Origin: Ligula intestinalis
Lineage: Eukaryota > Platyhelminthes > Cestoda > Diphyllobothriidea > Diphyllobothriidae
Length of the DNA stretch: 64,000 nt
Assembly (NCBI GenBank): GCA_036362985.1
Contig: JAYGXS010000010.1
Location: 3,400,472-3,464,471, forward strand
Reading direction: 5' to 3'
In this document: positions 10,746-63,929 of the stretch, piece by piece
Position numbering within the stretch: position 1 is the first letter of the stretch
How the letters are laid out: each line of letters starts with the position of its first letter
The notes under the pieces: generated by a model
The model's database searches: none
Told to the model about the DNA's origin: nothing
Seen by the model: only the letters and a program-made list of their open reading frames with translations
Program-made: the position numbers and the translations under genes

Positions 10746-11029
10746 CTCTGAAAACTTCTTCACCGTTGTCCGTATTGTTGTCTTTCCATTTTTCTCCATC
10801 ACCTACTTCTTAGCGGCATGAGTGAAAGCAAAAGTGCAATTAAGCTATGAAGGTAGACACCCCTGCACCAGCCCTACCTTCGAAAAAACTGCGTCCGATC
10901 TCTGTTCCACCGAGAATACCGCAGTTGCAACAGCGAATTTCTCCTCAAGACATCTAATCATTTTTGTAAAGGTCTGTATTAGGCGTCATGCACAACCGCT
11001 TGGGGTTCAGCCCCAAACGACGGAGATAA

Positions 11030-11165
11030 GGGAGACTGCTATGGCCAGTTCGGGATTATTTGCCACCATTGGCCCTTCATAGTCGATCTAAAGTGCAGAT
11101 CAGGCGAGATTCGAACCCGTGACCTTTGGTCATTGAGTCTAAAACTGTGCTATTGCACCACAAAC
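11030..11165 (-). repeat. tRNA-derived SINE, minus orientation
   Basis: On the minus strand a tRNA-like head with the B-box-like GGTTCGAATCT is followed by a body that ends near ATGGCCAGTTCGGG on +. The arrangement matches the better-preserved copy at 45555-45695. Confidence 0.55.
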
Positions 11166-21567: not shown

Positions 21568-24500
21568 ATGTCGGGCGCTTATGGCACGGATGGTAACCAA
21601 TCATCCAAAAATTCGTTGGAAGATATGGAAAACATGTTTGTTATTCCGTATTTATTCCTATTCCAATTTATAGTATCAACCAGCAAGTTGCAGCTATAGG
21701 ACAGCTGGGTGCTTCGCTTTCCGCGCTAGAGAAAGAAAACGAACGTTTGGGTAATTATTTCTCATTTTAACTTCTCGCTCTGCCGAGGTGCATCATATAT
21801 TTTCCAGACGTTGCTTGTTTATTTTTTTACGGTCGTCATAAAACCCACTAATCTACTGGCCCTTGGGACGTGTTTTCTGCACGAATAGTTAACTCACCGC
21901 ACGTGTGTGTGTGATAGTTCTACTAAACAAGGACTCACGTTTTCATCATCTGCGATGTTTGAGTCGCGTTTTATGCAGGAATTACAACCACCAGTGCCGC
22001 GGCCCTCGCTTGCTCGTCCATTTGCTTTTACTTGAAGAAGAGGTAGAGAAGAATATGTTTTGCTTGCCTCGAGTGCTGTCCTGACTTGTCCTAGTTTTCT
22101 GGATAGGACTAAAAAGGCGATGGTGCTAAGACAAAAGATAAAATCCTTGTAATATGTTTTTTTCTTACACGGGTGCACTTCAACTCCTTTTTGTTTTATA
22201 GATCCAATTCAATTAGCTTCATTATTAAATTTCCTATTTTGTTGTCCACACTGCCACTGCAGAGTGCTTCTCTTCGATACACCTCTGATTTATTCCACCT
22301 ATTTGTGCTGACTTATCTTTTACATTTGTATACCTACTAGGTTGGTTTGCCGCAGCTTTGGTTACCCTTGCTGAAGGTCCTACTATTAATCTCCTTCCCA
22401 CTGTAAGACATTTTTTAATTCAGTAGAAGAAGTACTTTGGGAGATTAAAAAGCTGAACTTTCAAAACCGGTATATCAACCAGAAAGCAGATAGGGAAAGC
22501 TGGGCGACCCACTGATGAGCCGGAGCCCTCGCAGCTGTGTCAAGCAGCGGCAGAATACCGGCGAAACACGTGTCTGGGGTCTTTTAGCAAGTACTTAGGC
22601 TGTTAGTATGGTAAGTTACAACAACTTTATCATCTGCACCGAGAGAGGCCTCAACTATGAGTAGTAAACTGGGTCGTAAAGACCGAAACTGCTGAAAGTT
22701 AATACTCCAGAGGCAAATTTGCAAACTAAGTGGGCGCAGAAGCAGAGAAACAATTTCATTACATGCTCTGCTGAGGTCTACTATAAAGCGTTACTGGCTA
22801 TCTTTAAAAATTCAGGCAGGAATCGCTCAGGTGGCCGCACGACGAATTTTCAGTAGTCCTTTTTGTCGGTCTTCTGTTTTCGTGCGATAATGGAAGACCG
22901 ACAAAAAACCTACTGAATGTGTGTTGTTAGGTGTTTATAATACATAAATATCCCTCAAAGACCCCACAACTAAATCTTCCTTTTATATGTCTTTCTTCTT
23001 CTCTGCCCTTAAACCAGCCGCAGAACAGCGAGCAGTCAAGTCAAGTACTGTAAAGGCCGATGCGGAAGCTCTCCAACGCTTCGTGGCCAGTGAATTCCGT
23101 TTGGCTCAGGCGCAGACCTTTCTGGTAGGTTTCTTCTTAACTGCAGCAGTCCTTAACGCAGGTTCACTACTCCAAAAAACAACAGCCCTACAAGCGGGCC
23201 CGCTTCTCTGTGTCTTCTGTTTCGACAGAGAAAACAACCGTGGTGACGACGACGACACCAGCTTCTATACTTGGTCAACTTCACCATGGCGGGCTTCTCA
23301 GTCCAGCCCTGAGCGCACTCTATAGGGCCGCTATCGAGCACGCGAAAGTCACCAAGATGAAGCTTAAACAGAGCTTCGATGACCTAACGGCTTGGAAGTT
23401 CTCTCCCGACAGGTATGTTACAAAACACCGTCGTCTTATCTCAGTGAATTGCCAATGTAGTCAGTCCTCAGGCTATATCCCCCGCTAAGATTGTGGAGGG
23501 CAATAATAGGAGTGTCGGTAGAAGCGAGTTCTAGGAAACAGTTCAGAATAGAAAAAGATGCAATCACTGGAACAAGAAGTTTATTTTCCTGTCGAGAATC
23601 CTTGATCATAGCTAACCGTTGAGTGGTGTGAGGCATACGCATTGTCATAAAACAGAGCTTCGATGACCTCACGGCTTGGGAGTTCTCCCCCGACAGGTAT
23701 GTTACAAAATAGCGTCGTTTCATCTCATTGAGATTTCCTTTTATCCGAATTGCCATTGTCTTCGTCAGCACCGGAGACCGAATACCGAAGGTTCAAGAAC
23801 CACTTCCATTTCCTGACTGACTGGGCTGACCCTCACCTTGACGTTTCCAGTTAGGTAACGGTTTAGGGTCGAGGGCAATGACACTGAGCTCGTGAGTTTT
23901 ACGGTTGCGAATGTGGCCAAACCACCTCAGCCGTCTTTCCTGAGTGGCCTAGGATATCCTTGCGATGTTGTCGCAGCGAGCGCGGACTGTCTCATGTGAG
24001 ACGAAGTCGGTGTACTTCATTCGAAGGATGGTCCTCAATCAGTAGTGGTCACATAACTTCAATTTTCGTTCATCTTCCACGCGCATAGCCCAGCATTCGC
24101 ATCCGCATAGAAGAAAAGACCGTACAGATGCGTGATACACGTGGACCTTCGTTGTAATAGAAATATCGCGTGGGGTCCATAGGCACTTTCAAAGGCTAGA
24201 GAAAACTCCCTGAGCTGCGTCAATTCGGGACATACTAACTGGTGCACTAACCAAGTCCAGTGACTACAGAACTTAAAACGGACTTCTCCTATGGCACTGT
24301 AGTGCTTTGGATGAAAGTAGGATAAATCATTGGTGGTATTAAAATATACTAAAATGGCTACTTTATGAATTTCAGTAGGCTAAATTGCGCATGTTCATTT
24401 AAGTTGGCGTAGTAGTTGTAGACGGGTCGCTTCTACTTCAACCCGTCTTGCCAGTCCTGCTACTACGTCTTCGACTCTTAACCCCTTAAAGTGGTAATTG

Positions 24501-27500
24501 CATGAGTACACATTCCTTAGCTCAGGGAGTTAGAAGTGATAGACGGGCTGCTTCAACTTAGCTACGACAAGACTTTCACACTAAACTTATTACGATCATT
24601 TTCATCATCCCCCAAAGAAGACGAAGAAGAAGGTTCAAGGATATGGACCGAGTTATATTGGGACTGACGTTTCGGACACTCCCTTGTTTCCATCGTCAGA
24701 CTAACGTGGTGGTTGTTTTTGATTGCCGGGACTGTTTCAACCTCGCTGCATGCCTGTTATTGTATCCATGCTCAGCGCACGAACTTTGACCTGCTTGTTC
24801 GCTGCTGACTGTCCGTGAGCTTGACTGCTGGGTGGCTCGTGCGACCTTTGTCCCCTTTGCGGCTGTCGTAATTGTTGGCAAGTCAGTGCGCTTACTGGCC
24901 TATCCCTCGTCCACCGGCGGACCAATCACTTGTTGCTGCCCGCATGAGTTCATGTCAACCTCGTGTGCGCGGTAACGGTGAGGTAGCGTTCCAAGCTGGT
25001 CACCTGGTCCCTGGCCGACCCCTCTCCTCTCTTCCTCTGATCTCAGTTATACTCCACACTTGTGTCTTCTTCGCCGTCCTGTTTGCCTGGTTTGAACTGA
25101 CTCGAGCCGCTTACGTACCACCTGGTAAGCAGGATGAAGGCCTATGGCTCTGTTAAGTGTGCCAGTCGAAATCAACTTTCCAGCAGAAGTCTAGCCATCT
25201 TGTAATTGGCTCGGCCTATTACCCTTGCATTGTCGAAGGCGAAGGTGTGCTTTTTCTGCCGTACGTGTTCATAGCCCATAGCTTATCCTCGCGGTTGATT
25301 GCGATAGTCCGAAACATCAGTCCCAATATAACTCGGTCCATGTCCTTGAACCTTTTTCTTCGTCTTTTTGGGGGATGATGAAAAAGATGAGATATCTGGA
25401 CCTCAAATCTTTGTATATAGTACATATTACGATGCATTGTGATTGTTGACAAGATGAATAATATTAGTAAACGGGGGAGGAGTATTTTTAATACTGTTGA
25501 CTGCACTTTTCTTGTGCTTTTCATACTATTAGCTTTCTCAAGTGTCATCTTTTTTAAATAATTCAAATCCAGCCCTTCAGGAAAGCGTCTCATGACCTGC
25601 ATGCGTCAATTGCTGGCGAAAAACGAAAGCCTCGGACGTGTCAACGAGGCTGACCGCTTGGCTTCCCTGGAGTCTGAGGCTGCGATGCAGACTACTTGCA
25701 TAGAGGAATTTCTGAAAACTAATCAAGGTAACCATCCTTCACTGGCGACGACGCATATCTTTTAGAACTTGAGTCTGTGCTAGAGGAGTCTTCGTTTGAT
25801 TTGGAGGGCCTCCAAAGTAGCCTCCTTATACTCAAGCAACAACTTTGTCTGGCCGAGTCCCTTCTAGATGAACTCAAGGTGATTCACGTTTTCTTTCTAT
25901 CATATTTGAGTTATCATGCTAACACTGTAATCTACTCCATTCCTATATATTTTAATGAATATCATTGCCGCCTATAGTCAACGTAACAGACAAAATTCGA
26001 ACGTGATACTGATATAGGCATCCAAGGTAAATTTGGAACTTTGCCAGAAATACCTGAGCTATGCATGCTATCAGCCTTTTCAATTAGTGTCGCTTAATAC
26101 TATCAATCCATTCGCTCTCTGAAAGCATGTTCGGTAGGGATTCCTTGTGGGGCCGCCTGGGGATCCTGTGGAGCGCGCCCCTCAGGCTCACGGGCACCTG
26201 GCTTTAGGGCAGAGGACGGATGGGGCATGACAGGAAACAAATTAGATCGCAATATTTCTGCAAAATAAAAAAAGTTACGAGGACAAGTTGGGTCGCGTCC
26301 TCAAACCTTGTTAGAAGACACTGAAATGCGCTTAAATATAATCACTAACCCCCTGCCCAAACAACAGCGAATGCGTGTATGTAGAGGGAATGGGCCTTAC
26401 CTCGGGCGAGGTCATTGAGGTACATTTTCTAGCGGAAACACCAACTAGAAAAAAGGACAACGCAGTACAAATGTGCAAAGATTCTGGGAATCACCCAACT
26501 TAAAATTTGTAAGTAAGTGGTTATTCCCGTGGTTAATTTAAAAGGCTAATTTCGCTTAGTATGGTGACTTAAGCGGTTATTGTATGCGGCGATCTTCGGA
26601 GGACCACTCTGTAGTTCAATGCCTTCATCAAATCCCTGCTGGACCGACGGATGGCGTGTAGAAAACTAGAAGATTGTGGGCAATCCAACCCACTCAAAAC
26701 ATTTAGGTAGGTGGCTATAATACATAAGGACCTTTTGAACACCCCACAAGGAAGCCCTACCGCATGTTCTTATCCAGTGTGCTCCAGAAGTATCTTCATT
26801 TTGCTCAGCTGACAGATATGGCCAAGTTTCTTACTGTTCAATATCGTTTTGTCTAACAAGCAATTCTCTCGTCGCAATGCTTTCTGTTGACTTTCGGATG
26901 ATCGACACATAGTGAACGTTCAGCAACGAGTGTCAATGTCTCCCAGTTTCAACTGTCAAGACAGCAAGCTCTTAGATCAATGGTTAGATCGTTATACTTC
27001 TGATCAAAATGTCACGAGTTGGAGGTGCAGGTGGTGCAGTTGGTTATGAATGGGTGATAACGGTTAATGTGTGTCTCCTTTGTTTTTGCCGGCAATGCTA
27101 TCTGCGACATGATCAGAGAGCAGTAGCAGATACTTATAGCGTATGCACAGGAGTTTGCAGTCATTACTGCAAACATATAACGACAATTAACCGTAATTGC
27201 CTTCTTGCGTGTTGATGGTTTGCTGAAAGGCATGCGGGCTCTGACCTGCTGACCTTCCATCACGCATGGAGGACTCGGGCGTGATGATTGTTCGGCCATC
27301 TGGCCCTCCGGTGTTGGCGTAGGATGACGCGGTGGCCTGTCCGTCCACCAAGTGGCGGCTTGCTTTGGCCAAAATGAGTTTCAGCACCAAATATGGATTT
27401 GGCAAACCGTTGCACTTTTTAATGGATTTGGGGCCCGTGAACCATAACTCGAGTAATTCTCGGCTCACCCGATTGTCACCCGTTGCGAGAATTTCGGTCT

Positions 27501-28777
27501 CATCGAATTTGAGTGTGTGGCCGGGTCTCGTCGAATGAGCCACAACTTGAAATTGTCAGCATTTCGCCACAATGCTGCCGCGTGTTCGGCAATTCGCGTC
27601 TCGAGAAGTCTGCCAGTTTCTTCGGCATAGTTTTTTTGCCCGCAACTGCATCAGATCCGGTAGATGACTCCAGATGTTTTGAGGGCGTGGCAGTTGGTCT
27701 CATTATCTGACGCCTTGTCGTTGCCTCCGACCTGTGTGGGCGGCCAACAGCCTTCGAGACCTTTTTTACGTACGGGATCGCTCGCCAATTTTGGGGTCGG
27801 TGTGACTTTTTTGGCCATCTCGTTTGTCTTCGATAGTGAATCCACGAGGGACCTCGAAAAGTCAGGTGAATCAATGTATTGTCCCAGCGATCGAGTCGTC
27901 TTCTTCTCAATGCTCTCTGCCGCTGTGCGACTGTTGGCAGGGCTCGAGAAGAAGCCTTAAGGTAGAACTGGACGAGTGATTTCCGTTAGCAATCGGTGAA
28001 CTTTCTGTTAGGAGCCATCCTAACCGATTCGCTCGCACGCAGCTCCGGGTGATTCGCTCTCACGACACGCTATCGATCCGCTAACACGCAGCGCATGTGG
28101 TGATACCGCGCAAACTGCGGCCAGGCTTAACACACCAATTGGCTCGCCACTCACTTGAGGACACAATCTGTTTGGTCCGGTCTTGTAACGCTTTGCTTGT
28201 CTTAAATATATGCCGTTCTAGGTATGCTAGTAGACTTTCATTTTTGCACAGTTGCTGTTGTGTTCTCCTTGGGAATTCAAACAAGGTGTAATTGGATGGT
28301 AACGTTTAGACTTGTGGCAACATTATACCACATTCATGGAAACAATGGATCGTATTTATTTTCAACCTCAATCCCTTCATTGTGTAATAAAGACAGAGTG
28401 GCACAGGAAACTTTGAACCTGTTTTGTCCGCAAAAAGGACCAACCTACAAAGTCTTTCTTTCTTTCTTTTTTCACAGAGGGAATATGAAGTGCATTGTCC
28501 CGGCCAGGTAGATGCCCTGATTGAGGCCGCTCTCACTGACCTCAGCCAGCTACAGGAGGAGGTTCCTGAAAACGAACCCGAGTCTCTTGACGTCGTCAGT
28601 GGTGACGCTGCCGATCGGCTGTTGCAGGAGAAGGAGGGCGAAAAGGAAGAAGAAGAAGAAGTGGAAGCATACGAAGAAAATTTCAGTCAAGAAAGAGACC
28701 ATGATGATGGCTCTACGTGCAAGCCGGAAGAAAGCGAAGGCGCCCCTTCGCAGGCGGAGTTGACCGAAAATACATAG
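21568..28777 (+). CDS. WTAP: WTAP / Fl(2)d, m6A methyltransferase complex subunit
   Basis: Exons: 21568-21635, 21674-21750, 23024-23124, 23162-23412, an inferred microexon 23510-23517, 25581-25727, 25766-25878, 28478-28777 (TAG). Phases agree throughout and give about 354 aa; human WTAP is 396. WTAP is the coiled-coil adaptor that holds the METTL3-METTL14 writer in nuclear speckles. Direct evidence: LTAWKFSPDR matches the family's LSAWKFTPDS. The next exon KRLMTCMRQLLAKNESLGR matches KKLMAKCRMLIQENQELGR. Exon 25766 (EGLQSSLLILKQQL) matches EGMQSTILVLQQQL. The C-terminal exon is acidic (EKEGEKEEEEEVEAYEE), where relatives have a low-complexity tail. An acceptor (TTTTATTGCAG) lies 3 bp before the ATG, suggesting a 5'UTR intron or spliced-leader addition. 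Three introns are 37-38 bp; the larger ones hold repeats. The N-terminal exons and the microexon are less certain than the core. Confidence 0.85.
22506..22581 (+). ncRNA. Hammerhead ribozyme motif, minimal PLE-type
   Basis: All conserved parts occur in order: stem I strand GACCCA, core CTGATGA, stem II GCCGG...CCGGC with a 34-nt loop, core GAAA, a tiny stem III (AC-ACGT-GT), cleavage triplet GTC at 22572-22574, and stem I return strand TGGGGTC (one bulged G). This is the minimal type I hammerhead with very short stem III described in Penelope-like elements and retrozymes. It lies in WTAP intron 2 in the sense direction. The surrounding element was not delimited. Activity is untested; the long stem II loop is unusual. 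Confidence 0.7.
22851..22915 (+). repeat. Long perfect hairpin in WTAP intron 2
   Basis: TTTTTGTCGGTCTTC at 22860-22874 is exactly complementary to GAAGACCGACAAAAA at 22893-22907, with an 18-nt loop. Outside this CAGTAG pairs with CTACTG, giving arms of about 24 bp. ATTTTCAGTAG also occurs at the end of other repeats (about 32588), so this may be a short inverted-repeat element. It lies about 110 bp upstream of a WTAP acceptor. Confidence 0.8.
23510..23517 (+). other. WTAP: Putative 8-nt microexon of WTAP
   Basis: Exon 23162-23412 ends in phase 2 (GAC AG), while exon 25581 must start in phase 1 (GA AAG CGT) to read the conserved KRLM block, so a segment of length 2 mod 3 is missing. GAGTGTCG, flanked by ATAATAG and gtagaa, supplies it and reads PDRSVGKRLM, against PDSQTGKKLM in human WTAP. 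The acceptor has a weak pyrimidine tract. Other candidates in the 2.1-kb interval cannot be excluded. Confidence 0.45.
23545..23645. mobile_element. Penelope-like element terminal fragment
   Basis: GATGCAATCACTGGAACAAG, then TTTATTTTCCTG, then GAATCCTTGATCATAG matches the termini at 61437-61515 and 39165-39215. It lies between the two copies of the duplicated WTAP exon end. Confidence 0.5.
23650..23738 (+). pseudogene. WTAP: Duplicated 3' end of WTAP exon plus donor
   Basis: About 75-90 bp closely matching 23366-23453: codes KQSFDDLTAWEFSPDR (E replaces K after W) followed by the same donor gtatgttacaaaa. ATAAAACAG just upstream could act as an acceptor. The original exon keeps the complete upstream sequence, so this copy is either inert or an alternative donor-containing fragment. 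Confidence 0.7.
24598..25395 (-). mobile_element. Penelope-like element with inverted termini
   Basis: The ends are inverted copies of about 85 bp: TCATCCCCCAAAGAAGACGA, then GGACCGAGTTATATTGGGAC and a TGACGTTTCGGAC block on the left, mirrored at 25310-25395. Minus-strand translation near 25290-25140 gives, in shifted frames, an AINREDKL segment, ARVIGRANYKMARLLLESW and related blocks, the C-terminal part of a GIY-YIG endonuclease. The same blocks occur in 47657-48783. It sits in the 2.1-kb WTAP intron in antisense. Frameshifts show it is inactive. Confidence 0.7.
24660..24705 (-). ncRNA. Hammerhead-like motif in Penelope terminus
   Basis: Minus strand: CTGACGA, a stem II TGGAAAC/GTGTCC with one mismatch, GAAAC, then GTC. 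Stem I pairing is poor. It probably derives from the ribozyme carried by this family's terminal repeats. Confidence 0.45.
26140..26745 (+). repeat. Interspersed repeat R1, copy 2
   Basis: Lies in the last WTAP intron in sense. It matches 6965-7690 along its length but without the (CAT)n expansion, and ends GGTGGCTATAATACATAAGG. Confidence 0.65.
26950..27025 (+). repeat. tRNA-like SINE fragment
   Basis: GATCAATGGTTAGATCGTTA resembles a tRNA A-box region, followed by CACGAGTTGGAGG where a B-box would be. It is diverged and low in certainty. Confidence 0.25.
27187..27910 (-). mobile_element. Penelope-like element, GIY-YIG C-terminal region
   Basis: The minus strand encodes AHSTRPGHTLKFDETEILAT followed by GDNRVSRELLELWFTGP, nearly the same as the plus-strand copy at 39369-39710. 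Upstream on the minus strand are diverged frames over 27500-27900. The distal end at 27880-27900 carries TTGTCCCAGCGATCGAGTC, the family's terminal motif. It is antisense within the last WTAP intron and broken by frameshifts. Confidence 0.7.
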
Positions 28778-30840: not shown

Positions 30841-31139
30841 GAGTTTTTTTCCCACATAAATCTAATGAAATTATAACCAACTAAACGGGTTATTTTAGGA
30901 ATCCAAACGGCTTACCGGATTCCCAAATTCGAATTAGCAAAATTTATGTGCTTTGCTGTCCTGAAACACAGTTATAACTTCGACTGAGAATCCTTTGTTT
31001 AAACACCACGTCATTTTACACGCTATGTAATTACTCTAGTTTTTTACTACGGATCGGCGCCCACCCATCGCATGTTGTTCCCTGGGGCTCTCCCACAGCT
31101 GAACAGCGGGTAGTACTTTAAGCGAAATAGTATTACTGG

Positions 31140-31278
31140 AGACTAAAGTGATCATTCCGGGCTCATTAGTCGTTATCAGCCGGTCATGTCCAGCCCCAAT
31201 GGGTAGCGACCCCCGAGGTCCTGACCCGTGACCTTGTTAACCAGAAGTCCAACACATTAACCACTGCGCCACAGACTC
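31140..31278 (-). repeat. tRNA-derived SINE
   Basis: On +, GCTCATTAGTCGTTATCAGC and then a tRNA-like head in reverse (CCAACACATTAACCACTGCG). It corresponds to the family at 45555-45695 and is inserted inside the foldback element. Confidence 0.6.
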
Positions 31279-44849: not shown

Positions 44850-45150
44850 TGTTTCAGAGGTATTCGTAGCTTAATTTTGTCCCTCAACTAGACCAAATTT
44901 TACGTATATGGCCTCGGAAAAGTTAATGAACAGTGGCCTACTCTGTGCACTCGATCCATAATCAATACTCACAGCCTGCTTAAATTCCCCCTTTTCCAGT
45001 CCAATTTCCTCTACATTCCGATCTCGCAATACGAGCGGTGTGAAATGTTGAGTTTTAATCGTTAGACTTTTATGTATGTATGACATTGTACAGGCCCTCG
45101 ATGATGAATTACCGAAAACATGTGGGTTTGCCAAATTGACTTTTCAAGTT
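44850..45150. repeat. Direct repeat R9, copy 2
   Basis: Counterpart of 43820-44100. Confidence 0.65.
44858..44874 (+). CDS. BLOC1S2: Candidate last exon of BLOC1S2
   Basis: A strong acceptor (TTACTTTTTGTTTCAG) is followed by AG GTA TTC GTA GCT TAA. Joined in phase to 43504 it completes TKLE, as in human BLOC1S2 (KKLE), then adds VFVA and a stop. It lies at the edge of repeat R9 copy 2; the copy 1 equivalent has lost the acceptor AG. The weak point is the very short tail. Confidence 0.3.
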
Positions 45151-45185
45151 AAACATGGGGGAATGCTGAAATAGATCCGACAAAT

Positions 45186-45301
45186 GAAGGGAAGACAGAA
45201 TGGCCATTTCTGGCTTGTTACCCATCATCAGCCAGTCATACCTTAACTCAGGGGTTGTAACCCCCCGAGAGCTCAACGCCCTATCACGGTACCATGGGCT
45301 C
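45186..45301 (-). repeat. tRNA-derived SINE
   Basis: AATGGCCATTTCTGGCTTGT then ATCAGCCAGTCATACC is the family body; the tRNA-like head is decayed (CACGGTACCATGGGCTCC). Confidence 0.7.
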
Positions 45302-45554
45302 CTTGCTTTGTCGTTTGAGATCGGCAGTATGATGAATATATGTTCTTCGCCGGTCTAGTAGAGGAACAATTCAATTGCGTTTTGCCCAGAAGATCACAAC
45401 GTGAACCCACCAGACCGTCACATAGTGACTATGATGACTATCTGGTAAGGGCACATACTTGTCCCGGAAGTGCCTTGAGGCTCGTACTTGAGCGATATCA
45501 GGCTTGTCGCTTAGCGACCTCAGAATATGATGGAGTGGATCCGACAAAGACAAG

Positions 45555-45695
45555 GGAGACCGGAATGGCCATTTCTGGCTTGTTAACCGTCATCAGCCAG
45601 TCATACCCAATCTCAGGGGTCGGAACCCCCGAGATTCGAACCCGGGACCTTTGATCATTGGGTTTACCACCCTACCTCGGCACCACGGGCTCGTT
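45555..45695 (-). repeat. tRNA-derived SINE, best copy
   Basis: The minus strand begins CGAGCCCGTGGTGCCGAGGT and carries GGTTCGAATCTCGG as a B-box, then a conserved body ending GGCCATTCCGGTC. It is the clearest member of the family seen also at 45186, 50610, 31140 and 62290. Confidence 0.8.
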
Positions 45696-50200: not shown

Positions 50201-53200
50201 ATACTTCTTCTTTCGAACCCTCAACTTGTGACAGCCCAACCTTCCCTATTTTCATTCAATTCTACCAATACAAGGTCGAATGTCCCTTGTTTTCGTGAAA
50301 TTCCGCCGAGATAGTTACCGTCAATGGGCATCAGTTGCCTGAGAAAGAAGAGTATATGTTGCCGGAGTTGATACTATTCAGCTCATTAAAACAACTATAT
50401 GTGGCTTTACTTGAATTTTGCTTGGTCACTTTTGACACAAGTTCATATTTAACACTCATCAACGAAGAATTAACTATTTAACCACAATTCCGTAAGACAA
50501 AGGGGAATAGATATACAGACAGCCCTAAGAGACAGTCTTGCACATAAGTATTGCTAGGTAGGCGCTGCACATAAATAGACCAGTTTGACCATGATAAGAT
50601 GGATTCGACAAAACAAAGGGAGACCGGAATGGCCATTTCTGTCTTATTAGCCGTCATCAGCCAGTCATACCCAATCTCAAGGCTTGGAAGCCCCGAGTTT
50701 GACTATGCTATTCAAAGCACTTCCAAATAATAGGAAATGGTCCTTGAAAAATCCTGATTCGTTGCGAAATTTAGCTTTCCGAATTATAAATAAGAAGGTA
50801 TCCAAATGTTGCGTTTAATTTTATTGAAAACGGTAGAAATTTGTTGTTGTTGGCCCACCCAGTGGCCAAAGGCCTATCTTGCCATGTGTCGTACCGGTTT
50901 TCGTGCGTAAAGGGAAATGAGAAGACACAACAGGCGCCGTACCGGTGCGTGACAACAAAACTGCTGCGGAAAGGATAAAAAGACCAAGAAGGAAGCCTAT
51001 AGGCCAAGTAAACTACTATACCAACTCCTACTGGTTAACATAATCAAACAAATGTTTAGTTTACGTAAATTCGACCTACTGAAAACTTACAAGTAGCTTT
51101 TGTTTGTTAGTAATACCTACCTCAGGCAACCCGCCAATAAGCAACTACCTAGAAACTATTGACCTGCACAAATGCCGAACAATTATTTTAGATCTCTGGG
51201 AATGACTAGTAAGCAGTCTTCACGATCCTTGGGTAAATTTAAATGACAAACAAAAGGATGAGGGTATTTTAGAAATATATCGCAAAATGTAATTACATGG
51301 ATCGTTCTCCCTCACTTTCCTTGGACATCTTCGCTTAGCTTAACCACCAGGGTCTGTGAAGAGCAAACTACGTCTCTAATTTTTCAGAATATTTGATTAA
51401 GTGTCTAAGAATGGAGAAAAAGAATGCAGCGGCTTTAGGTAGTTCACTGCCTTAAACGCTAGATTTGGCGAAATTTATAATGATTCATCAACACCTTGTT
51501 ATATTTATCGCTGACTGCGAACCAGTTAATGCATTTTAACAAAAAAAGTTCTTTGCTATGTCCTCAACTCATTCCCAACTTGCATTTTTAGCACATTTTA
51601 GTGCGCTTTACATATGTTGGGAAATAAACAGACAAATCATTGCAAATTAAATCGGACGTGATATTACGAAAACGGATGAAAGTGGAAAAATACATTCACT
51701 AATTGTTTACTTACTCTGTTTCTGCCTATTTGTTTTTGATGCTGTGCCCCTAACTTACCTTGTATAAGCAGAATCCTGGCAGTTCTCATAACGTTTACGA
51801 TTCAATCGCAGACTGAGCCGGGTCTCTGCAATCCGTCTCGGTTCCTCTTTATCCGTAATGCTCCTTCTCAACATTACAATGTTGCTTTCCACTTCCGCAA
51901 TTTCAGCCATTACCTATAGACAGAATGGAGTGTTAAATTGACCAATATTATGACGTCTTCAATACGTCCGACATCTCATGCAAGCTTTCAAATTTTTCGA
52001 AAGACTGATAGTCACTCCTAAAACGGTATTAACTAAGGTCTTATTAATTATTATCGTGCAGCTTGATCTCGCATCACTTTAGTCACGTCAGGATGTTGGA
52101 TTTTTAAGGAGTTGCCTTCTGTCTTCTCACAAAATGTTTATTCTGTAAAAAAATGGCTACTTACGTAAGTATTAGCTTAACTCGTTTTACTTCACCTGCT
52201 TTTATAAACTGAAGTATATTTTATAGAAAAAATTCACAAAATTATTCATTCTTGTACTCTTTTGGTAGCAAATAACGCGTTTTCCAAATTTTATGCTTAA
52301 CGGAAGGGTATATTTCAGCTTTACAAAAGCTGTTAGATTTTTTACGACTTTGAAGTGTTTATTCATAATACACCGCATCTGGCAATTGTTTTATGCTGCC
52401 TTTTATGTATATAGCGTGGTCCACATCTATCACAAAATTTTATGAGAACTAAGTGACTTCTGGCTCAGACCATAAAGATGTGCACAGCATGCATTTTGAA
52501 AACATTTAATTCAGCTGTAAGATTCTCTAGGTCTCAAACACTTCGGCAAATCAAAAATCTTTAAAAACGAAATATATCATTTGTTGAAGTATAAAATTTG
52601 AAGAAGACGTAATTTTATTACCAAAAGAGTGCAAAAAACTATACTTTTGTTAGTAATTTCCATTAAGCTATTTGCATTTATAAAGGCAGTCAAAACTAAT
52701 GTGTTAAATGCATAGTACCTTAGAAGTCATTTTTTTACCAAATATAATTATCTAAACTATTCCGAGAGGAGCTCTTTAAAAGGTCAGCATTTCGTCGTGA
52801 CTGAAACGATTTGAGATGAAGCTGCACGATAGTCGGCATTACTACCCAACTTAATAGCAGTTTGCGAGTGATTGTCAATCTTTTGCAAGTTTTGGAATTT
52901 TGCATGAAATACCGGCCACGCCATATATTTGAGGTGGGTTCTACATTAGATTCCCTATCTCAGTAAATGTCACCCGGGATTCTGAAATGTGTTCTCGATT
53001 CAAACATATTAATCACATGTGGTTGTAACAAGCTCAACATGTTTTTGGTCACGTGAGGATGACGGCTTCTTAACGAGGATCTCTCAGACCATTAATCAAA
53101 TTTACATACTGTTAAATGTGGCTACTTAAGTAGCATGCATATTCATCATTGATTTGGACTGCCTTTATCAATTCAAATATATTTTAATAAAAAAATTGAC

Positions 53201-61570: not shown

Positions 61571-62289
61571 GCTGTATCACTTGGGATTCGGTTGACTGAA
61601 TGCCGCAGTTAATAAATTTGAAGCGGAAGTTATTTATTAAATTTCGAGAGAGTTTATCAACCTCTTCCTCTGTTTGCATGAATAACAAAGCAATCAGAGA
61701 ACACATCATTTTGAATTTTTACAGACTCGATAATAGCAAGATCTTTTTAACGTTACGCATGGTCATAAGTAATGTCAACTTGATCAGCTCTCTGGAAATA
61801 TATTTGTACAACTAAATTCTGCCGTTGTCGCTTGCTTAAAATTTGTGCCTGGGCAAAAAAAGACGGTGAATAAGTCAGAAAGGGTCATTCTACTCGCATT
61901 TGCCTTTTCTTAGCAATGTTCTTCTGCTGAACTCTTTATTAACAAATTTTGAAGCCTTTAACCTTCTATGCCTCCTAGCCCCAATTCAGCATGCTTTCTA
62001 AAACCATGTTTTGACTTGCTACGCTTAAATAATATATCTTTCTGTTAGGACGGTCCAGCACGCGAGTCGTCACTCTGGCCGTCCTGAGGGAAAGAGAACA
62101 AAAAAAACCTCCGGGCCAGTGGGTGTATCTTTTAACCAGATCGTTTTGAGTTGGCTTTTCGCTCCTGTCTGACCTTGATCTTCGCCTAAAGATGAAGAGC
62201 CCTAGCTTAATTCATATAGAGCCCTAGGGTTTACTGGCCGATTCTAGGATTATTAATTTCTTGTCATCAGAGTTTTCCGGCTCAAACAA
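61571..62289. other. No gene recognised
   Basis: Frames near 61506-61815 overlap each other on both strands without domains. Confidence 0.4.
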
Positions 62290-62445
62290 GGCACCGTGAA
62301 ATAGCTATTTCGGGCTATTGGCCCTCATCAGCCACGGGTAGCCAACTCTAGTGTAGCAGCTGAAATTGCCGCCGCACCCGAGTTTCGAACACGCGCCTCG
62401 CCGGTCAGGGGCAGACGTCCTAACCATTGAGCCATCGAGGTAGAT
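62290..62445 (-). repeat. tRNA-derived SINE
   Basis: The minus strand has ACCTCGATGGCTCAATGGTT (A-box region) and GTGTTCGAAACTCGG (B-box), then a body with GGCTGATGAGGGCC on -. Confidence 0.7.
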
Positions 62446-63929
62446 GTCTAGCCGGTTGTAGATCGGGAGCATATATCGGTGCACAAACAAATAATTAAAT
62501 TCTTAAATTTGTTTGGGAGATATTTAACGACAAGATGTGGATAGATGGGACAACGGAGTTTCGAACCTTCACAAGAAAACCCGTACCTCAGTAACTTCCG
62601 CTTTATTCATATATTCAATAACTGCAAAAATCAGACGGTATGGCCCAAAATTCGTGCAAAATGCATATCTTTGTAAACGTTTCGTCATTAATCGCCTACC
62701 GGTGTGAACGCATTTACGAAAAATTAGAAATCACCATGAAAAACATTAGGCAAATTTAAAACTTAAATAAATTATAAGAAGTACAAGGTGTTTGTTAAGA
62801 AAAATAAAACTTTCCCCATAATGCCCAAGTTCCGGCGACGTAAAAATAGCTATAAATTAGAAAAATAAATGTTGATATTTTCTGAAGTTGACAACTTCAG
62901 GTAGCCAATTTCTTTGCATAAAAAGAGCTTTTCTTTTGCCAAAATTTTTTGTACATATTGGCATAATTTGGAGACTATTTATTTAATCTCATCCTTCAAA
63001 TTCTGGCATAATTTCCAGCGTTTTCAGTTTCTTTATGCGCTCGTCCATCAATTGAGTTTCTGTTCGACAATAGCGGATTCCATAACATAAATTCTGCCAA
63101 AAATAAGACACGGAAGTGGGAACTTCGATTCCGACGAAACAGGATGTCATGTCTAAAGTTACAGGAAAGATTAATCTGCCTATGTCTCAGTCTTTTAAAT
63201 TAACACAGCACCTCAGGCAGTGGAGATTCCTATGCATACAGTCGCGTCGGCAACAGCAGTTTATGTAGCCCCCTAACATACCCCCTAGTCCCAGCATGTT
63301 GTTTTACGAAAACTGTGGTTATAGGGTTTTATGGGTGGAGAATAAGGATATGCAGTAAAATATACTTTAATAACTGTTGTATGCATTTTTATTTTATTGT
63401 ATTTAGAAGTGTTGTTGATTTATATCCAAAAATTGTCCTAATCCGTATTACCTTTTAACGTATTGCGGAAAAACACGATTATCAAATTGCGGCTTTTTTG
63501 AAATTCCCGAAATATAGAAATGGTTGGTATGGGGTCGTCTACTTCAACTTACCTGAGGTCCAACTTTCCATTCTGGAGTTAGGTTAGTAAAGTCTGTGGC
63601 CCTTAGCGTTGCGCACACCTTCAATTTACATGTGGAACAACTTACTCCCAGCGGGTGCGTGAAACAACTTCGACTACATTTTTTCACTTTACACTTACTT
63701 CTAAACATTTTTTTCTCTGTCTTTCCTATTTCCCCACTCCCCAAAACCCTATAACTACTGTTTTCGTAAGGTAACATGCTGGGGCTCAGAGTATAGTAAG
63801 GGGGCTACATAAGCTACCATTTCTGAATTTTATTGACCATTTTCAGACTCCCATGATGCAAAGGGAAGAGTGCTAGCATACCGACCAAGCTGTCCAGCTT
63901 CGAACACTGCATATCCCCGATCTTATACC
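62446..63929. other. No gene recognised
   Basis: AT-rich. 63275-63370 and 63700-63830 are an imperfect inverted pair: TAGCCCCCTAACATACCC and CATGTTGTTTTACGAAAACT against GTTTTCGTAAGGTAACATGC and AAGGGGGCTACATAAGC. No coding signal. Confidence 0.5.

What the first reader, a model, noticed from the sequence alone, without database searches (positions are those of the whole stretch)
22506..22581. Minimal hammerhead ribozyme motif in a WTAP intron
All conserved blocks are present and correctly spaced: CTGATGA, GAAA, GTC, a 5-bp stem II, a two-pair stem III with ACGT loop, and complementary stem I. It is transcribed in sense inside a pre-mRNA, so self-cleavage could affect intron 2 processing. The 34-nt stem II loop is unusual.
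Basis: partly seen in the sequence, partly recalled or inferred. Interest (0 to 1): 0.75.

Follow-up and report, generated by a model that had tools for sequence, protein, structure and literature searches.

The report
Retrozyme fragment in tapeworm WTAP intron
The self-cutting RNA motif is real and lies in an intron of a tapeworm gene, but it is a broken copy of a small mobile element repeated in this genome, whose insertions hint at how such elements jump.

Summary
The motif is real: window 22506-22581 holds a complete type I hammerhead core (Rfam RF00163, 28.7 bits, below the curated cut-off of 34). It lies in sense in intron 2 of a genuine WTAP gene of a diphyllobothriid-like tapeworm. It is not a stand-alone intronic ribozyme but part of a truncated copy (22437-22622) of a dispersed, non-coding 335-bp element; the window's own genome gave 126 matches to one unit, a lower bound. 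The element fits metazoan non-LTR retrozymes: type I hammerhead, tandem units, 44.5% GC, target-site duplications. Of 54 pieces in 40 distinct loci, 36 exceed one unit; 45 of 54 3' ends fall at two sites (unit 199-216 and 33-45), against 5 of 54 5' ends. In 12 of 12 adjoining head-to-head insertions the outward 3' ends use one site each. This suggests target-primed reverse transcription of circular or multimeric RNA from two fixed points, possibly by Penelope-like machinery. The single copy's active fold is 6 kcal/mol above the optimum; a modelled dimer adopts a double hammerhead. A strong effect on WTAP splicing is unlikely.

The parts
22437..22622 (+). truncated copy of the 335-bp retrozyme-like element (unit positions 16-199 of reference copy L019:1147-1481, 96.2% identical); 5'-truncated, 3' end beside the main 3'-end cluster of the family
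22506..22581 (+). type I hammerhead ribozyme motif
   Evidence: RF00163 28.7 bits; 23 of 28 family copies read, this one included, keep CTGANGA, GAAA, A15.1/U16.1 and H17
22512..22518 (+). core CUGAUGA
22519..22562 (+). stem II (22519-22523 with 22558-22562) with an inner hairpin 22528-22553 in the 34-nt distal part
   Evidence: stem II end-pair probabilities 0.99
22563..22566 (+). core GAAA
22566..22573 (+). helix III: 8-nt palindrome ACACGUGU; 2 bp plus ACGU loop as a monomer, 8 bp between two molecules as a dimer
22574..22575 (+). predicted cleavage site, after C22574
   Evidence: position of H17 in the motif; not tested
22499..22511 (+). 5' strand of extended stem I (partner 22575-22588)
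22575..22588 (+). 3' strand of extended stem I
21751..23017 (+). WTAP intron 2 (exon 2 ends at 21750, exon 3 starts at 23018)
21568..21635 (+). WTAP exon 1 (ATG at 21568; right boundary approximate)
   Evidence: tblastn with tapeworm WTAP
21675..21750 (+). WTAP exon 2 (left boundary approximate)
23018..23124 (+). WTAP exon 3
23186..23412 (+). WTAP exon 4
25573..25727 (+). WTAP exon 5
25766..25878 (+). WTAP exon 6 (boundaries approximate)
28475..28774 (+). WTAP exon 7

Best explanation
The motif is the hammerhead module of a truncated insertion of a non-autonomous, non-coding, retrozyme-like retroelement (unit 335 bp) into intron 2 of the WTAP gene of a diphyllobothriid-like tapeworm. Shown by sequence: the repeat family, its tandem or over-length units, target-site duplications, clustered 3' ends, scattered 5' ends and head-to-head double insertions. 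Inferred: multimeric transcripts are cut by the ribozyme acting as a dimer, and monomers are ligated into circles. A partner reverse transcriptase, probably of the Penelope-like (PLE) class, nicks target DNA and starts copying the RNA at one of two fixed points (unit about 204, in an AC-rich hairpin, and unit about 36). It often runs more than once round the template. When both target strands are primed, one start point serves each strand. The WTAP copy is a by-product; its effect on WTAP RNA is most likely small. Separate estimates: retrozyme-type fragment 0.9; target-primed copying of circular or multimeric RNA from two start points 0.65; PLE as the partner 0.5; biologically relevant cleavage of WTAP pre-mRNA 0.1.
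For: Genome copies: 69 matches to window 22400-22700, itself included, with only 40 of 2530 first-look candidates scored; 126 matches to one unit, itself included, 40 of 2864 scored. Ends: 49 fetched loci, 9 duplicates dropped, 40 distinct, 54 pieces of at least 60 nt. 3' ends: 25 of 54 at unit 199-216 and 20 of 54 at 33-45. 5' ends: 3 and 2 of 54 in the same bins. 36 of 54 pieces exceed 1.02 units. Within 5 nt of the cleavage junction: 0 of 54 3' ends, 1 of 54 5' ends. Head-to-head pairs: 12 of 12 adjoining pairs, typed in from the listing, use one site each; 2.4e-4 if random. Duplications: 25 of 39 insertions share a word of at least 7 nt at both ends, against 3.0% of 1482 mismatched pairings. 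Site 204 borders the loop ACAACGUC of a hairpin in the circular fold. A PLE reverse transcriptase in vitro starts inside its RNA in an AC-rich stem loop, has two start sites and cuts and extends both strands (PMC11167929, main text read whole). PLE-type GIY-YIG ORFs abound here (150 matches); adjacent pairs under 3 kb in that listing are 9 outward and 0 inward by my reading. The modelled dimer forms a double hammerhead with the core unpaired, -76.9 against 2 x -34.0 kcal/mol.
Against: No RNA data of any kind. Over-length inserts could also come from uncleaved tandem transcripts rather than circles. The start bins were set after seeing the ends, and the loci are the best-scoring ones, not a random sample. 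24 of 54 5' ends lie in unit 250-330, so 5' ends are scattered but not uniform. Only site 204 lies at an AC-rich loop; site 36 does not, and the two sites are unlike in sequence. The circular fold is about 1.9 standard deviations better than 60 mononucleotide shuffles, no more. No similarity (E up to 1) between the unit and 16 PLE loci (1.5 kb either side of the GIY-YIG match), and no hammerhead by descriptor there. The window copy's own duplication is at most 5 nt (ACTTT), which is not significant. The ribozyme core is not more conserved than the rest of the motif: 5 of 345 against 22 of 1707 mismatched cells, with 138 of 5476 outside.
Confidence: 0.85

Rival explanations
1. A domesticated intronic ribozyme: the copy in WTAP intron 2 self-cleaves co-transcriptionally and tunes splicing, as proposed for amniote intronic hammerheads and for the CPEB3 ribozyme.
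For: Sense orientation in a real WTAP intron. Intact core. Stem I reads TGGGGTC where most other copies read TGGGCC; it pairs better, and the Rfam score is 28.7 against 23.2 in the one other copy that I scored (L011). CPEB3 precedent: PMC10919898 (abstract and outline seen).
Against: Indistinguishable in kind from many dispersed copies. The monomer ensemble disfavours the active fold. The intact core is the family norm (23 of 28), so it is no sign of selection here. No cross-species comparison was possible.
Confidence: 0.08
2. A piece of a pseudo-LTR of an autonomous Penelope-like element, not of a separate non-autonomous element.
For: PLEs carry minimal type I hammerheads lacking most of helix III (PMC7761336, passages). 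PLE ORFs abound in this genome and occur in the window.
Against: Units follow each other directly at 335-336 bp in several loci. PLE protein hits fall in only some of the 20 loci and without a fixed arrangement. No similarity of the unit to 16 PLE loci (those stretches may not reach the pseudo-LTRs).
Confidence: 0.12
3. A degenerate copy of the tRNA-headed, hammerhead-carrying SINEs that also sit in the window.
For: Same window and genome hold such SINEs. A one-mismatch B-box-like word lies 53 nt upstream of CTGATGA.
Against: A covariance model of six SINE copies does not list it up to E = 5. Among the blastn rows printed for SINE loci L001-L008 against the window none is at 22506. The 335-bp family has no visible likeness to them.
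Confidence: 0.02
4. Chance resemblance.
For: Score below the Rfam cut-off; unremarkable folding energy.
Against: 0.0067 expected descriptor hits per window; intact in 23 of 28 family copies read.
Confidence: 0.02

Closest known systems
Metazoan non-LTR retrozymes (coral, mussel, axolotl; PMC7229834, sections 13, 14, 17 read; it also mentions analogous repeats in platyhelminths)
   Same: Type I hammerhead, non-coding tandem units of a few hundred bp (150-450 reported; 335 here), GC under 50%, duplications longer than 4 bp
   Different: Here a stem II extension of 34 nt with its own hairpin; two fixed 3'-end sites and head-to-head double insertions. No expression or circle shown here
Penelope-like elements with minimal hammerheads (Anolis PAc; PMC11167929, main text read whole)
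   Same: Very short helix III; reverse transcription starts inside the RNA in an AC-rich stem loop with two sites; both strands primed
   Different: No RT or endonuclease in the unit; the two sites are 168 nt apart, not adjacent, and only one is at an AC-rich loop; no sequence similarity found to 16 local PLE loci
Schistosoma Sm-alpha / Sj-alpha SINE-like elements (PMC2770079, passages) and W-elements (PMC8490949, passages)
   Same: Flatworm hammerhead repeats; W-element hammerheads have an extremely short stem III
   Different: Sm-alpha is tRNA-derived and resembles the other hammerhead family of this window, not the one in the finding
Intronic hammerheads of amniotes (RECK, C10orf118; PMC3088659, passages)
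   Same: Hammerhead in an intron
   Different: Those are conserved at one site across species; this one is a dispersed repeat copy

Membership tests
Type I hammerhead ribozyme | Conserved core CUGANGA / GAAA / NUH | tested here: met
Type I hammerhead ribozyme | Three helices around the core | tested here: met
   helix III only 2 bp as a monomer
Type I hammerhead ribozyme | Rfam RF00163 curated score of 34 bits (a database cut-off, not a biochemical feature) | tested here: not met
   28.7 bits here, 23.2 in copy L011
Type I hammerhead ribozyme | Canonical loop I - loop II tertiary contact | tested here: inconclusive
   stem I has only a bulged G and a C.U mismatch; most SINE hammerheads read in the same genome have a UAC or similar internal loop there. 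Which loop is canonical is recalled, not from a call
Type I hammerhead ribozyme | Self-cleavage | not testable with these tools
   needs a transcript
Metazoan non-LTR retrozyme | Type I hammerhead in a non-coding repeat of about 150-450 bp | tested here: met
   335-bp unit, longest stop-free stretch 66 aa in two units
Metazoan non-LTR retrozyme | Multimeric or tandem copies dispersed in the genome | tested here: met
   36 of 54 pieces exceed one unit; the window copy itself is 0.56 unit
Metazoan non-LTR retrozyme | GC below 50% | tested here: met
   44.5%
Metazoan non-LTR retrozyme | Target-site duplications longer than 4 bp | tested here: met
   25 of 39 with at least 7 nt; not shown for the window copy
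Metazoan non-LTR retrozyme | No LTR, primer binding site or polypurine tract | not tested
   not looked for
Metazoan non-LTR retrozyme | Expression as linear and circular RNA | not testable with these tools
   no RNA data
Penelope-like element | RT and GIY-YIG domains in the element | tested here: not met
   335-bp unit has no ORF of that size; PLE hits in the loci irregular
Conserved intronic ribozyme | Same site conserved across species | not testable with these tools
   no related eukaryotic genome could be searched

The most novel reading that the evidence does not exclude
Hammerhead retrozymes of this tapeworm are inserted by a Penelope-type, two-strand, target-primed reaction on a circular RNA with two dedicated start sites half a circle apart (168 of 335 nt), one used for each target strand. 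The genomic copies would thus be a readable record of circular-RNA retrotransposition.
Probability: 0.35. Interest if true: 0.75.

Novelty: new member of a known kind. Interest (0 to 1): 0.55.

Why it matters
How animal retrozymes are reverse-transcribed and inserted is open; circles as templates and PLEs as the machinery have been proposed (PMC7229834, discussion). The ends of this family give a testable pattern: fixed 3' ends, scattered 5' ends, more than one lap, and paired use of two start sites. The intronic location itself is probably incidental, and shows that an intact hammerhead in an intron is not evidence of a host function when the motif is part of a repeat. In the held library my searches listed no paper on cestode retrozymes, judged by titles and the starts of abstracts; papers not held may exist.

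Tried and rejected
Rejected: relation of the motif to the SINE hammerheads of the window. Led nowhere: a protein search with the exon-4 reading alone (0 matches); DNA patterns in viral contigs (0 hits); internal twofold symmetry of the unit (best circular self-identity 30%; the two start-site contexts no more alike than shuffles, 477 of 500 shuffles scoring as high); an RT query (P0033) whose loci look LINE-like by my reading and whose 16-nt likeness to the unit seems to be the 3' end of those elements; hammerheads near PLE ORFs (none in 16 loci with 1.5 kb flanks). The 8-nt direct repeat AAGTACTT around the motif, which I considered as a target duplication, is not supported: its right-hand copy lies inside the repeated element. 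Papers asked for but not held.

Full report
Observation. The stated blocks are present at the stated coordinates. Rfam's type I hammerhead model matches 22506-22580 at 28.7 bits (E 2.9e-5 for 301 nt; cut-off 34, not reached). Scans of the whole window did not list it (at the cut-off; up to E = 10, probably lost to filters). A descriptor of core plus stems gives 2 loci in the window and 28 hits in 4183 shuffled windows. Folding energies alone are unremarkable (z -1.15 and -0.31). The large stem II 'loop' carries its own hairpin, and stem I extends outwards.

Gene and organism. PLE-type ORFs and WTAP point to a diphyllobothriid-like tapeworm: the closest named proteins are from Dibothriocephalus, Sparganum/Spirometra and Schistocephalus. 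The spliced reading of exons 2-6 stays open and has 7 matches: 84-89% identity in the four closest, then 78, 46 and 47%; Pfam Wtap 84.8 bits. Exons 1-7 are collinear on the + strand. The motif lies in intron 2, 21751-23017, in sense; the predicted cut is about 820 nt after exon 2 and 440 nt before exon 3. The numbering rests on a very short intron 1 whose borders are approximate.

It is a repeat. The window's own genome (644 Mb, 2377 contigs, unnamed) gave 68 further matches to window 22400-22700 from 40 scored candidates, most of them 89-98% identical, several in series at 335-337 bp. One real copy (L019:1147-1481) served as reference unit: 335 nt, 44.5% GC, longest stop-free stretch 66 aa in two units. 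It gave 126 matches, itself included (40 of 2864 first-look candidates scored). The window copy is unit 16-199, 96.2% identical; with a 3-nt deletion allowed it reaches unit about 204. Of 28 hammerheads read in 18 loci, the window's included (the overlapping L013 and L028 dropped), 23 keep core, closing pair and H17. Mismatch rates among copies over 90% identical were 1.3-1.4% in the motif and 2.5% elsewhere, but the copies were chosen by likeness to the motif region, so this is not evidence of selection.

How it inserts. For 40 distinct loci (49 fetched, 9 duplicates dropped; L009, the window itself, not counted) I mapped piece ends on the unit (pieces of at least 86% identity and 60 nt). 3' ends: 25 of 54 at 199-216, 20 of 54 at 33-45, 9 elsewhere. 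5' ends: 3 and 2 of 54 in those bins; 24 of 54 in 250-330, so not uniform. 36 of 54 pieces are longer than one unit. Almost no end coincides with the hammerhead cut (0 of 54 and 1 of 54 within 5 nt). 14 of 40 loci have pieces on both strands. In 12 of them the pieces adjoin, always head to head with 3' ends outward, and in 12 of 12 one 3' end is at site 204 and the other at site 36 (2.4e-4 if random, pairs typed in from the listing, wide bins set after seeing the data). The other two loci (L031, L035) have distant pieces and were left out of that count. 25 of 39 insertions have a shared word of at least 7 nt at both ends against 3.0% of 1482 mismatched pairings; the cluster locus L010 was not used there.

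Reading. Fixed 3' ends with scattered 5' ends and duplications are the mark of target-primed reverse transcription (general knowledge). Passing the cut site, and more than one lap, calls for a circular or multimeric template. Site 204 borders the AC-rich loop of a hairpin in the circular fold (that fold is only about 1.9 standard deviations better than shuffles), which recalls the in vitro behaviour of a PLE reverse transcriptase: internal start in an AC-rich stem loop, two sites, both strands extended (PMC11167929, main text read whole). Site 36 has no such loop. In that system the hammerhead needed protein to cleave and was not needed for insertion. PLE ORFs are numerous here (150 matches, 150 of 32997 candidates scored), and adjacent pairs in that listing point outward in 9 cases and inward in none (my reading; two may be duplicate contigs). 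No sequence link between the unit and 16 PLE loci was found, so PLE as partner remains an inference.

Ribozyme action. In the single copy, the active fold is at -28.0 against -34.0 kcal/mol for the best fold, and the four inner stem I and stem III pairs examined have probabilities of 0.01 or less. Two molecules together adopt the double-hammerhead fold with an 8-bp helix III and an open core, -76.9 against -68.0 kcal/mol for two monomers. Such energies ignore tertiary contacts. Weak helix III with dimer action is known for type I hammerheads (PMC7761336, passages). The lone WTAP copy is thus expected to be slow at best.

Second hammerhead family. The window also holds tRNA-headed SINEs with hammerhead domains, best preserved at 62276-62350 on the minus strand (RF02275, 26.7 bits, cut-off 52). 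Five relatives in the window align with it, with six pairs changed on both sides against 0-2 when slid; Rfam does not list a hammerhead in the two relatives that I submitted alone. Genome-wide there are 31 matches to RF00163, of which 22 exceed the cut-off (73 of 92101 candidates scored). All 8 loci read carry such a hammerhead, L002 of a separate subfamily, and by my reading seven of the eight have a tRNA-like head (L006 is a rearranged copy). This is the Sm-alpha architecture of schistosomes (PMC2770079, passages).

Verdict. A real motif, correctly placed, but a fragment of a mobile element rather than, as far as the evidence goes, a regulated intronic ribozyme. The family behind it is the more interesting object.

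Noticed in passing
window 62276-62474 (-): tRNA-headed SINE with a type I hammerhead (RF02275 26.7 bits, below its cut-off of 52); related to hammerhead SINEs elsewhere in the genome, many over the RF00163 cut-off (L001-L008 read).
   Followed up: partly
window 45501-45639, 45129-45274, 50561-50700, 31137-31220, 11018-11095 (all -): Further hammerhead-derived SINE copies. Three of the five keep CTGATGA and GAAA, with the palindromic helix III AUGGCCAU and U at position 17, but two of these three have a C.A mismatch closing stem II; the other two copies are decayed. Rfam lists no hammerhead in the two tested alone.
   Followed up: partly
window 23366-23447 and 23650-23731 (+): The 3' part of WTAP exon 4 with its splice donor is duplicated 284 bp downstream, 90% identical; not needed by the gene model.
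   Followed up: no
window 22849-22919 (+): 70-nt imperfect foldback between the element and exon 3 (MITE-like or miRNA-like; Rfam mir-208 far below cut-off).
   Followed up: no
G000 C8:19182809/19185044 and eight similar pairs: PLE-type GIY-YIG ORFs in adjacent head-to-head pairs pointing outward, like the retrozyme double insertions.
   Followed up: partly
L010 and on (G000:C5:27445598-27451304): A cluster of many tandem units of the element, the first about 97% and most of the rest about 70-82% identical to the reference unit: perhaps an older subfamily kept as an array.
   Followed up: no
unit positions 36 and 204 of L019:1147-1481: The two 3'-end sites lie 168 nt apart, half of the 335-nt unit; no sequence likeness between them. 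May be coincidence.
   Followed up: partly
G000 C2:64977192-64978037 and C1:1950882-1951714: Two further double insertions in the match list, not fetched and not counted, whose outer matches end at unit 36-37 on one side and 205-208 on the other, as in the 12 counted pairs.
   Followed up: no
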